From positions 1-64,000 of IMG/VR virus record IMGVR_UViG_3300020473_000024: a stretch of 64,000 bases of DNA; one strand, 5' to 3'. A program made the position numbers and the translations under genes. Within the stretch, counting starts at the first letter, position 1; each line of letters starts with the position of its first letter. Positions 12,401 through 60,127 of this stretch are shown one piece after another. The notes below the pieces were generated by a model. It was not told the origin of the DNA, ran no database searches, and saw only the letters and a list, made by a program, of their open reading frames with translations. Source of the DNA: a virus.

Positions 12401-12895
12401 TTATAATTTATACCAAACAAGGTTGAACTCATAAGATTCTACGATAGACTCTGTAATCATCCTCACCTCTTCCCAAACACCACCAGCTCTATCAGAGCCG
12501 ATTTTATATGGGAATCCTAGTGTGACATAAGAAGCACTTCCACGTTCTAGTAGGATGCGGTCTAAAGCCGCAGTTAAAGCTGAGACATAAGCTCCGTAGT
12601 GTAGTTGCCGACCATTCTGTTTAAACCACTCACCGTATATTCCATAGTATTCTTGCCCGTATAGGTTAAATACACCCGATCTTAGATATAGAGGTGCAAA
12701 ACTGAAAGTGCCAAGAGTATCTCCTTTTAAGGCTTTGTCCCACACTGTATCAGCTTCATAAGCTTCGGGAATACGTTCCCTCACTTCCTTTGCAATACCA
12801 CTACCAAAGTTGTTCTGGCAGTTGCAACAATGAAACATATAATCAACGTCACCATTCAAGAAAGCGTCTATTAAATTACCTTGAATTATTTTCAT
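12401..12895 (-). CDS. Macro-domain protein (ADP-ribose binding/processing)
   Basis: 164 residues from ATG 12895 (SD GGAGGCAGT). The macro fold is seen in MKIIQGNLID (first strand), HCCNCQNNFGSGIAKEVRERIPEA (the N-x(n)-G-x-GIA ADP-ribose loop) and a C-terminal LGFPYKIGSDRAGG loop. The layout is closest to Poa1p/DarG-type macro domains, which remove phosphate from ADP-ribose 1''-phosphate or ADP-ribose from modified targets. It is the first gene after a consensus promoter, so expression should be early and strong. It may reverse host ADP-ribosylation or process ADP-ribose; this is inference. Confidence 0.85.
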   Translation of the reverse strand: MKIIQGNLIDAFLNGDVDYMFHCCNCQNNFGSGIAKEVRERIPEAYEADTVWDKALKGDTLGTFSFAPLYLRSGVFNLYGQEYYGIYGEWFKQNGRQLHYGAYVSALTAALDRILLERGSASYVTLGFPYKIGSDRAGGVWEEVRMITESIVESYEFNLVWYKL

Positions 12896-12917
12896 ACTGC
12901 CTCCAAAGACGTATATA

Positions 12918-12946
12918 ATTATAGCATAAAGGGAGGGAGCTGTCAA
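12918..12946 (-). promoter_or_regulatory. Consensus sigma70 promoter with -35 in a hairpin loop
   Basis: TTGACA (12941-12946) and TATAAT (12918-12923) with a 17-base spacer, a perfect consensus on the minus strand. The -35 lies in the loop of a GGAGC...GCTCC stem at the end of the upstream gene, so the site may also end upstream transcription. It drives the macro/mazG/thyX/nrd operon. Confidence 0.9.
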
Positions 12947-12969
12947 GCTCCTCTCCTATTTCTTTAAGA

Positions 12970-14172
12970 TTATTCGTAGACAGTGATTGTCTTCTGTTGA
13001 GGAATTACTTCACGTAGGGTGTCTAAGATATAATCATACTCATGTCCGTGATAGCTGTAATAGCTGTATTCAGCGCGATAGATTTTATCACCTAAACGGA
13101 ATACACCGTAACAATACTCAGATCCACCTTCACCGCCACCTTCTTGCTCTAAGTGTTCATAACCACCTAGTTGTTCAAAGATCTCTTCCTCCTTTTGTCG
13201 TTTAGCATCCCAATAAGTATTGACTTCTTTGAGATAGTTAGGATCATCATAAGGGCGTCCACCCCGATCAGGGTATTTTAAACCCACTGAGTCGTCACTA
13301 GCGTCTAAACTGTCTCCCTCACACAATGAGTAAACTAGATCCTTCAAACCATCTCCCATCTCACTTTGGAGACCTAGCTCTAGTGCTTTCTCAAAAGGTG
13401 CTAAATCAACTTTGTTTGACATATTAAATTCCTCCATAATATTTTTAAAATAACTATATTCGGGCTTAATAAAATGTTCTAAGTTAAGAACGATAAACGA
13501 AGTAGCCCATCCCTTCGTCAAACTGGTAATGGTTTTCCGTAGAGACCACTGCCAAGCCCTCCACCAACAAATCTTGCCTTTGCTTGGTATCACCCAGCGC
13601 TCCATAGCAATCACTGTCATCTCCTCTCGGAACATCCTCACTTGTTGCTCAAAAGGAAGAGAATTAAATTTCTCTTTATCAACAAGAACATCTTCACCAT
13701 CCTTGAGTATCTTAGAGTACACTGGATCGTTAGGATATGAAACCACACTATGAAGCCAATCGTGGTCGTAAACGTAGGTTACGTTATCTGTAAAGAAATC
13801 CTCTTTGTTCTGCGACAGAGATAGGAAGTCTTTGTTCCCCAACTCTCCTCTCCAGTGCTGTACCAGAGCATCATATAAAGCTGGTATCAGCTTACAGCCT
13901 TTGCTCTGCATGAGAAGAGCATCTTGCTTGTGTTTCTCCCAAGCATGGTTATCCCAACCCGAGTGAGATAGTTTGATCGTGTAGAGAACATCAGGAGGTG
14001 CGTACCCATCAATATCAGGGATAAGTCTCATAACCTCATTAGGCAGGATATGTACATCTTCTCCATCTCCTTTCATGTAAATAGAGTTTTCTCCATGCCA
14101 CAAATCGAGGTCATTAGGATCACGCCAATCATCCCACCAGTATTTAGCCGCTGTGCTCCCTACAATAATCAT
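12970..14172 (-). CDS. Nucleotidyltransferase-fold-like phage protein, probable two-domain fusion
   Basis: 400 residues. The N-terminus (IIVGSTAAKYWW...DPNDLDLW) resembles the GS...DxD core of nucleotidyltransferase-fold proteins. Residues ~250-400 look like a separate module: an in-frame ATG at 13422 (MSNKVDL) has a strong SD (GGAGG, 6 bases upstream), and the last 50 residues resemble the C-terminus of the neighbouring 98-residue protein. So the gene may make a full-length protein and a 150-residue C-terminal product. Catalytic activity is unproven. Confidence 0.55.
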   Translation of the reverse strand: MIIVGSTAAKYWWDDWRDPNDLDLWHGENSIYMKGDGEDVHILPNEVMRLIPDIDGYAPPDVLYTIKLSHSGWDNHAWEKHKQDALLMQSKGCKLIPALYDALVQHWRGELGNKDFLSLSQNKEDFFTDNVTYVYDHDWLHSVVSYPNDPVYSKILKDGEDVLVDKEKFNSLPFEQQVRMFREEMTVIAMERWVIPSKGKICWWRAWQWSLRKTITSLTKGWATSFIVLNLEHFIKPEYSYFKNIMEEFNMSNKVDLAPFEKALELGLQSEMGDGLKDLVYSLCEGDSLDASDDSVGLKYPDRGGRPYDDPNYLKEVNTYWDAKRQKEEEIFEQLGGYEHLEQEGGGEGGSEYCYGVFRLGDKIYRAEYSYYSYHGHEYDYILDTLREVIPQQKTITVYE

Positions 14173-17387: not shown

Positions 17388-17448
17388 TAAAAAAGCTGTG
17401 TACCAAATCAATGATACACAGCTTAATAGCTTATCTTGCGTTTGTCAA
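17388..17448 (-). promoter_or_regulatory. Composite terminator/promoter element (copy A)
   Basis: On the minus strand TTGACA (17443-17448) is followed by a 17-base spacer and TAAGCT (17420-17425), then a 10-bp hairpin (17393-17402 with 17415-17424) and a run of six T. The hairpin can end the exonuclease operon while the hexamers start the next transcript. The same design and closely matching hairpin sequence recur at 60083-60127. Confidence 0.7.
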
Positions 17449-23429: not shown

Positions 23430-23461
23430 TATACCTCCTCTGCTTCAATAAAGTGACAGGT

Positions 23462-23489
23462 AGTATACCACACAATAAACTCCTGTCAA
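23462..23489 (-). promoter_or_regulatory. Sigma70-type promoter for the ssb/SPFH operon
   Basis: TTGACA (23484-23489), 16-base spacer, TATACT (23462-23467) on the minus strand, right after the end of the polymerase gene. It gives ssb and downstream genes their own transcription start. Confidence 0.85.
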
Positions 23490-39765: not shown

Positions 39766-39807
39766 AAGCTCATGTCTCTTGACATGGGCTTTTTCTTTAT
39801 GTATGCT
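39766..39807 (+). promoter_or_regulatory. Composite terminator/promoter element
   Basis: AAGCTCATGT (39766-39775) pairs with ACATGGGCTT (39782-39791) followed by a T run: a terminator. Within its loop and right arm TTGACA (39779-39784), then 17 bases and TATGCT (39802-39807), forms a promoter. Upstream transcription ends as the next unit begins. Confidence 0.8.
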
Positions 39808-39837: not shown

Positions 39838-39909
39838 ATGATACAATTTAGTAAAAGATTTTTACCATCTGAAGATATGTTTGTCAAACAGAGTGTTGGG
39901 ATTAAATAA
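39838..39909 (+). CDS. Very small ORF, 23 aa
   Basis: ATG 39838 with AGGAG 7 bases upstream; MIQFSKRFLPSEDMF followed by VKQSVGIK. It is the first reading frame from the promoter at 39779-39807, 15 bases before the next gene, and could be a leader peptide. Confidence 0.4.
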   Translation: MIQFSKRFLPSEDMFVKQSVGIK

Positions 39910-42394: not shown

Positions 42395-42430
42395 AAAGGG
42401 TTTGACAGGCTCAAGCCCTTTGTTTAAGAT
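42395..42430 (+). promoter_or_regulatory. Composite terminator/promoter element
   Basis: An 11-bp stem (42395-42405 with 42411-42421, one G-T pair) around CAGGC; TTGACA (42402-42407), 17-base spacer, TAAGAT (42425-42430). It can end the upstream unit and start the next at 42471. Confidence 0.75.
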
Positions 42431-60077: not shown

Positions 60078-60127
60078 ATAAAAAGCCATGTACCCAAAAG
60101 GATACACGGCTTAACTAGGATTGTCAA
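60078..60127 (-). promoter_or_regulatory. Composite terminator/promoter element (copy B)
   Basis: Minus strand: TTGACA (60122-60127, overlapping the clpP-like stop), 17 bases, TATCCT (60099-60104); a 10-bp hairpin (60083-60092 with 60103-60112) and a T run. The hairpin sequence closely matches copy A at 17393-17424, including the bases around the loop and the flanking ATTGTCT. Confidence 0.75.

What the first reader, a model, noticed from the sequence alone, without database searches (positions are those of the whole stretch)
12918..12946. Terminator hairpins that hold the -35 hexamer: a recurring control element
At least three sites (12918-12946, 39766-39807, 42395-42430) put TTGACA in the loop or arm of a hairpin at the end of one gene, with a 17-base spacer to a -10 element for the next. 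Two others (17388-17448 and 60078-60127) put the -10 at the hairpin arm. Ending and starting transcription in about 40-60 bases is a compact solution, and might let the two compete: RNA polymerase reading through could occlude the promoter.
Basis: partly seen in the sequence, partly recalled or inferred. Interest (0 to 1): 0.7.

Follow-up and report, generated by a model that had tools for sequence, protein, structure and literature searches.

The report
Overlapping terminators and promoters in phages
At several short gene junctions this phage packs the stop signal for one gene group and the start signal for the next into the same 40-60 bases, so that a new transcript begins too late to contain its own stop signal; unrelated phages do the same, and it looks like economical packing rather than a new kind of switch.

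Summary
All five named sites carry TTGACA, exactly 17 bases, then a TANNNT -10, overlapping an RNA hairpin stronger than its shuffles. A sixth lies outside the window (record 78645-78703). TTGACA-N16-18-TANNNT occurs 21 times in the window against 3.5 expected. The headline site is a perfect consensus promoter, but its sense U-tract is weak, so it is the least certain terminator. "A recurring control element" is not supported: the register differs from site to site, an exact TTGACA hairpin loop is not enriched, and random placement in gaps of 70-98 bases already predicts 5.4 of 6 overlaps. Best reading: compact overlap of an intrinsic terminator and a host sigma70-type promoter. Starting at the predicted start site removes the hairpin at five of six own sites (weakened at the sixth), so the terminator acts on upstream transcripts only. 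The arrangement recurs in unrelated phages (22/140 such promoters against 65/1374 decoys); between PAK_P3 and KPP10/Epa24 the stem changes but still pairs around an unchanged TTGACA. Occlusion remains possible: lambda tR1/PRE is a precedent. I found no description of this layout in the open library, which lacks most subscription journals.

The parts
12918..12946 (-). Site 1 promoter: TTGACA (12946-12941), 17-base spacer, TATAAT (12923-12918)
   Evidence: 12/12 consensus, TG before the -10
12932..12956 (-). Site 1 hairpin GGAG-A-GGAGC-TTGACA-GCTCC-CTCC; the first T and last A of TTGACA pair, TGAC is the loop; weak sense U-tract
   Evidence: RNAfold -16.6 kcal/mol for 12918-12970, z -2.98; sense tail CTTTATGC below the scan threshold
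39766..39791 (+). Site 2 terminator hairpin AAGCTCATGTC-TCTT-GACATGGGCTT followed by TTTCTTT
   Evidence: -15.9 kcal/mol, z -4.6 for the folded stretch
39779..39807 (+). Site 2 promoter TTGACA-17-TATGCT; GACA lies in the 3' arm
42395..42421 (+). Site 3 terminator hairpin AAAGGGTTTGA-CAGGC-TCAAGCCCTTT followed by GTTTAAG
   Evidence: z -5.2
42402..42430 (+). Site 3 promoter TTGACA-17-TAAGAT; TTGA lies in the 5' arm
17420..17448 (-). Site 4 promoter TTGACA-17-TAAGCT
17393..17424 (-). Site 4 terminator hairpin AAGCTGTGTATC-ATTGATTT-GGTACACAGCTT followed by TTTTATTGTC; the predicted start site falls inside it
   Evidence: -18.7 kcal/mol; 0.0 when folded from the predicted start site; z -5.4
60099..60127 (-). 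Site 5 promoter TTGACA-17-TATCCT; the -35 holds the TGA stop (60126-60124) of the upstream gene
60083..60112 (-). Site 5 terminator hairpin AAGCCGTGTATCC-TTTT-GGGTACATGGCTT followed by TTTATTGTC
   Evidence: -20.3 kcal/mol; 0.0 from the predicted start site; z -5.4

Best explanation
At these junctions an intrinsic terminator for the upstream gene group and a host sigma70-type promoter for the downstream gene group share the same 40-60 bases, because the gaps are only 70-98 bases long. RNA polymerase arriving from upstream transcribes the whole hairpin and tends to stop at the U-tract, which lies in or just past the promoter. RNA polymerase that starts at the promoter begins at or beyond the hairpin's 5' arm, so its RNA lacks the full hairpin and runs on. 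The terminator therefore insulates the new unit from read-through without stopping the new unit's own transcript. Shown: the promoter and hairpin sequences, their overlap, the loss of the hairpin when folding from the predicted start site (five of six own sites, with -11.2 instead of -19.1 kcal/mol left at the sixth), recurrence in other phages, and stem changes that keep pairing around an unchanged TTGACA in relatives of PAK_P3. Inferred: that host RNA polymerase starts and stops there in infected cells, and that packing rather than regulation is the reason for the overlap.
For: TTGACA-N16-18-TANNNT 21 against 3.5 in the window; 18 non-coding in the record against 0.39 per permuted hexamer. 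Five hairpins in the window and one outside it fold below their shuffles, and five of the six are among the top-scoring intergenic hairpins. In 13 phages, 22 of 140 such promoters overlap a strong sense terminator against 65 of 1374 decoys (odds ratio 3.75, p 5e-6); without this phage p is 2e-4. Folding from the predicted start site removes the hairpin at 19 of 22 listed sites and weakens it at three: record 78645, Ab5 74139, M1 69969. No strong terminator starts 41-150 bases downstream of 367 promoters, against 10 for 562 decoys (p 0.008). Gap simulation gives 5.4 of 6 overlaps by packing alone. PAK_P3 has AGCCCCAGGAC-TTGACA-GTCCTGGGGCT, annotated as a terminator by its depositors; in KPP10/Epa24 one pair changes on both sides (A-U to C-G) and two go to G-U, with all 11 pairs, TTGACA and TATCTT kept. 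Acinetobacter phages Ab5 and Ab3-TPeters have rebuilt arms around the same TTGACA. No sigma region 4 domain in the record (control rang), which fits use of host sigma70.
Against: No transcript data exist for this phage and I found no close relative, so the six sites have no conservation test of their own. Site 1 has a weak sense U-tract. Hairpins begin only 8-16 bases after the upstream stop codon at sites 1, 2, 3 and 5, where ribosomes can suppress termination (PMC4824070). Folding from the predicted start site still leaves -11.2 kcal/mol at record 78645. The PAK_P3 comparison rests on two sequence types and did not beat shuffling (266 of 500). The decoy tests treat sites and phages as independent.
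Confidence: 0.72

Rival explanations
1. Regulatory coupling by pause-enhanced occlusion: RNA polymerase pausing or terminating at the U-tract sits over the -35 to -10 region, so an active upstream unit represses the downstream promoter until upstream transcription falls.
For: Geometry: the U-tract lies in or next to the promoter at all six sites. [quoted passage not shown]
Against: Occlusion needs a high flux or a long pause (PMC6593788). The register is not conserved between sites. Phage 186 lacks the effect at the comparable promoter. Packing alone explains the overlap.
Confidence: 0.18
2. Polymerase relay: RNA polymerase that has released its RNA at the terminator stays on the DNA and restarts at the promoter it is sitting on, so upstream transcription feeds the next unit.
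For: Single-molecule work shows post-termination RNA polymerase diffusing on DNA and reinitiating at nearby promoters in 37-55% of terminations, depending on sigma, with an effect expected to depend on terminator-promoter distance (PMC6978380). Here that distance is near zero.
Against: No data for this element; recycling works over long distances too, so zero distance may add nothing; needs sigma retention or rebinding.
Confidence: 0.1
3. One partner is spurious: at some sites the hairpin is not an effective terminator (site 1 above all) or the TTGACA/TANNNT pair is not an active promoter.
For: Site 1's sense tail CTTTATGC is weak and its antisense tail better; the -10s at sites 3, 4 and 5 are off consensus (TAAGAT, TAAGCT, TATCCT); many weak promoter-like matches occur by chance.
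Against: All have exact TTGACA with exactly 17 bases; the class is about six-fold over shuffles; folding z-scores for the six stretches run from -3.0 to -5.4.
Confidence: 0.2
4. Hairpin promoters read as single-stranded DNA by a phage-carried RNA polymerase, as in N4.
For: Hairpins lie at the promoters.
Against: The hexamers are host sigma70 consensus with 16-18 spacing; hairpin register varies; my gene calls contain no N4-size virion polymerase (longest 776 codons). The Pfam search for single-subunit RNA polymerase was empty but its control did not ring either, so that part is inconclusive.
Confidence: 0.02

Closest known systems
E. coli ampC/frd overlap (described in PMC6045580, citing Grundstrom and Jaurin 1982)
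   Same: Upstream terminator and downstream promoter share DNA at an operon junction.
   Different: There the terminator serves as an attenuator of ampC, i.e. it lies in the new transcript; here the 5' arm starts upstream of the predicted start site, so the new RNA escapes it.
Lambda tR1 over PRE (described in PMC6593788)
   Same: A phage terminator overlies a promoter, and polymerase pausing at it can occlude that promoter.
   Different: Lambda PRE is a convergent, CII-activated promoter; here terminator and promoter point the same way and the promoters resemble unactivated sigma70 sites.
PAK_P3 terminator 72359-72384 and its relatives
   Same: TTGACA at the hairpin tip, 17-base spacer, -10 just after the U-tract, short gap between co-directional genes.
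   Different: Unrelated sequence; annotated only as a terminator, the promoter not noted; longer, stronger stem than site 1.
Bidirectional intrinsic terminators of phages (e.g. pf16, PMC5587285)
   Same: One palindrome used for two purposes.
   Different: There two terminators face each other; here a terminator and a promoter read the same way.

Membership tests
Intrinsic (Rho-independent) terminator | Stable, partly GC-rich RNA hairpin directly followed by a U-tract | tested here: met
   Sites 2, 4, 5 and record 78676 met clearly; site 3 has UUUGUUU; site 1's hairpin is met but its U-tract is weak
Intrinsic (Rho-independent) terminator | RNA 3' ends at the U-tract in vivo or in vitro | not testable with these tools
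   no transcript data for this phage
Host sigma70-type promoter | TTGACA-like and TATAAT-like hexamers 16-18 bases apart | tested here: met
   exact TTGACA with 17 bases at five sites and 16 at the sixth; all -10s fit TANNNT, from 3 matches of 6 (TAAGCT) to 6 of 6
Host sigma70-type promoter | 5'-triphosphate RNA ends 6-8 bases past the -10 | not testable with these tools
   no transcript data for this phage
ampC/frd-type terminator-attenuator | Whole terminator downstream of the start site so that it attenuates the downstream gene | tested here: not met
   5' arm begins upstream of the predicted start site at all six sites; hairpin lost in the new RNA at five and weakened at the sixth
A single recurring element with the -35 in the loop | Conserved register of hairpin to hexamer, and TTGACA enriched as the loop | tested here: not met
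   start offsets -47 to +4; exact TTGACA hexaloop 1 of 240, not above other hexamers
Pause-enhanced occlusion (lambda tR1/PRE) | Upstream polymerase pausing over the promoter lowers its output | not testable with these tools
   geometry compatible only

The most novel reading that the evidence does not exclude
Embedded promoters are a relay device: polymerase that terminates at the hairpin stays on the DNA and restarts at once from the promoter beneath it, so that transcription is handed from one phage gene group to the next with a set ratio; many tailed phages have arrived at this independently.
Probability: 0.1. Interest if true: 0.7.

Novelty: new variant of a known kind. Interest (0 to 1): 0.36.

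Why it matters
The Felix O1 genome paper says it is not known how transcription gets past its many terminators, by read-through or by secondary promoters downstream (PMC3185647). Promoters embedded in terminators are a concrete answer for some junctions. They also give natural, co-directional test cases for pause-enhanced occlusion, of which PMC6593788 says no example beyond lambda tR1/PRE was known, and for reinitiation after termination, in phages that can be grown. In practice, genome annotation that labels such a site only as a terminator, as in PAK_P3, will miss a promoter. If it is only packing it is still a useful annotation rule, but not a new mechanism.

Tried and rejected
Close relatives of the phage: none by megablast in the phage collection; protein searches found only distant relatives or none, so the six sites could not be tested for conservation. 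The exact site 1 pattern is absent from IMG/VR. The junction homologous to site 1 in L006 has a different hairpin and no TTGACA promoter. TTGACA as a favoured hairpin loop: rejected. A conserved hairpin register: rejected. DNA hairpin promoters of the N4 kind: disfavoured by size and hexamers; the family search for single-subunit polymerase is inconclusive. With a looser promoter score, enrichment over decoys in 13 phages is only modest, because many weak matches are false; T4, SPO1 and KLEP7 show none with exact hexamers. The Felix O1 case at 79299 overlaps an annotated gene and I do not rely on it.

Full report
What was checked. The window is the first 64,000 bases of an 85,011-base virus record with genes of a lytic tailed phage: ribonucleotide reductase, DNA polymerase, primase/helicase, nicotinamide phosphoribosyltransferase, DNA ligase. 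The nearest named phages share only about 45-52% protein identity: KLEP7, Plateaulakevirus 2L372X, Vibrio K354. My own gene calls give 142 genes.

The sites. Each has TTGACA, exactly 17 bases, then TANNNT, and each overlaps a hairpin folding more stably than its shuffles (z -3.0 to -5.4). A sixth lies outside the window on the same record: TTGACA-16-TATAAT at 78645-78672, with hairpin AGGCACATTCC-TTCACT-GGAGTGTGCCT at 78676-78703 followed by TTATTTTT. Site 5 is the most compact: its -35 holds the TGA stop codon of the upstream gene. Site 1, the headline, is a perfect 12/12 promoter, but its hairpin is followed in the sense direction only by CTTTATGC and did not pass my terminator threshold; the antisense side has a better tail.

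Chance. TTGACA-N16-18-TANNNT occurs 21 times in the window against 3.5 in shuffles, with no shuffle reaching 21. In the non-coding part of the record there are 18, against 0.39 per permuted hexamer. Five of the 18 overlap a strong sense terminator, about five times the decoy rate (p 0.01). So promoters, hairpins and overlap are all beyond chance.

Packing. Overlap beyond chance does not mean overlap was selected. Placing a promoter and a hairpin at random in gaps of the six observed lengths (70-98 bases, with room for a ribosome site; for site 2 the gap is counted to a predicted 24-codon frame at 39838) gives 5.4 overlaps out of 6. The register is scattered: the hairpin start runs from -47 to +4 relative to the -10 end. 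An exact TTGACA hairpin loop is not enriched over other hexamers of the same letters. These three results argue against one dedicated element.

Consequence of the overlap. With the start taken 7 bases past the -10, the new transcript starts beyond the hairpin (sites 1, 2, 3) or inside it (sites 4, 5, record 78645). Folding from that point leaves 0 kcal/mol at the first five and -11.2 instead of -19.1 at the sixth. The same holds for most of 16 sites in other phages. In 13 phages no strong sense terminator starts 41-150 bases downstream of 367 promoters, against 10 for 562 decoys. The terminator can therefore act on RNA from upstream while the new unit's RNA escapes it. This is an inference from sequence.

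Other phages. With one pipeline across 13 phages, 22 of 140 exact-hexamer promoters overlap a strong sense terminator, against 65 of 1374 decoys (p 5e-6); without this phage p is 2e-4. Best cases: Acinetobacter phage Ab5 (5 of 9 promoters) and Pseudomonas phage PAK_P3, where AGCCCCAGGAC-TTGACA-GTCCTGGGGCT-TTGTCG-TATCTT lies between two co-directional genes and is annotated as a terminator only. In KPP10 and Epa24 the stem reads AGCCCCGGGCC/GGTCTGGGGCT: one pair changed on both sides, two became G-U, all 11 still pair, and TTGACA, spacing and TATCTT are unchanged. Only two sequence types were available, so this is suggestive; the shuffle control did not separate (266 of 500). In Acinetobacter phages the arms around TTGACA differ between Ab5 and Ab3-TPeters while pairing, U-tract and promoter persist. 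T4, SPO1 and KLEP7 show none with exact hexamers, so the layout is common but not universal.

How it probably works. Best reading: packing, with the start site placed so that the new RNA escapes the terminator. Regulation on top of this is possible. Terminating polymerase must sit over the promoter, and lambda tR1/PRE shows that this can occlude; the paper describing it says no other example was known (PMC6593788). Polymerase released at a terminator can also restart nearby (37-55% in vitro, PMC6978380), which would make the element a relay. Sequence cannot choose between these. At sites 1, 3 and 5 the hairpin begins 8-13 bases past the upstream stop codon, a distance at which ribosomes strongly reduce termination in E. 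coli (PMC4824070), so read-through may depend on upstream translation.

Relation to known things. Shared terminator and promoter DNA is known from ampC/frd, but there the terminator serves as an attenuator within the new transcript. I found no paper describing phage promoters embedded in terminators so that the 5' arm precedes the start site; the library holds only open-licence papers, so this is weak evidence of novelty. The Felix O1 authors state as unknown how transcription passes their many terminators, a question this layout partly answers.

Verdict. The interpretation as a recurring control element is not supported in its strong form; occlusion is open. Interest is modest: a real, widespread, apparently unnamed packing habit that offers good test cases for two debated mechanisms.

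Noticed in passing
12911-12956: Site 1's -10 lies in TATAATTATA, readable both ways; a plus-strand TTCATA-17-TATAAT (12891-12919) would send an antisense RNA straight into hairpin 12932-12956, whose plus-strand tail (TATTTCTTT) is the better U-tract. The hairpin may mainly stop antisense transcription.
   Followed up: partly
L002:10616-10659 (record 74515-74558): Strong hairpin AATATAAGGAGAGGAGGGATGGGATAAGCCCTCCCTCCTATATT followed by TTTAATG, just after a gene of the structural operon; its 5' arm holds AAGGAG, GGAGG and a three-codon frame ATG GGA TAA, and the U-tract runs into the predicted start codon at 74563.
   Followed up: no
23454-23489 (- strand): Promoter TTGACA-16-TATACT flanked by the inverted repeat TGACAGG-N21-CCTGTCA, which looks like an operator.
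   Followed up: no
17393-17424 and 60083-60112 (- strand): The terminators of sites 4 and 5 look like copies of each other (GTGTATC ... GGTACA ... GCTTTTT(T)ATTGTCT), yet their -10 elements sit at different registers.
   Followed up: no
39838-39909 (+ strand): A short frame (23 codons plus stop) with an upstream AGGAGA follows site 2 directly and would be the first gene of its unit.
   Followed up: no
23462, 25341, 34172 (- strand) and record 64734, 65929: Five TTGACA promoters share TGTGG directly before the -10 (TATACT, TATAAT, TATTAT, TAAAAT, TAATAT): an extended -10 with an unusually constant base context, possibly a promoter subclass.
   Followed up: no
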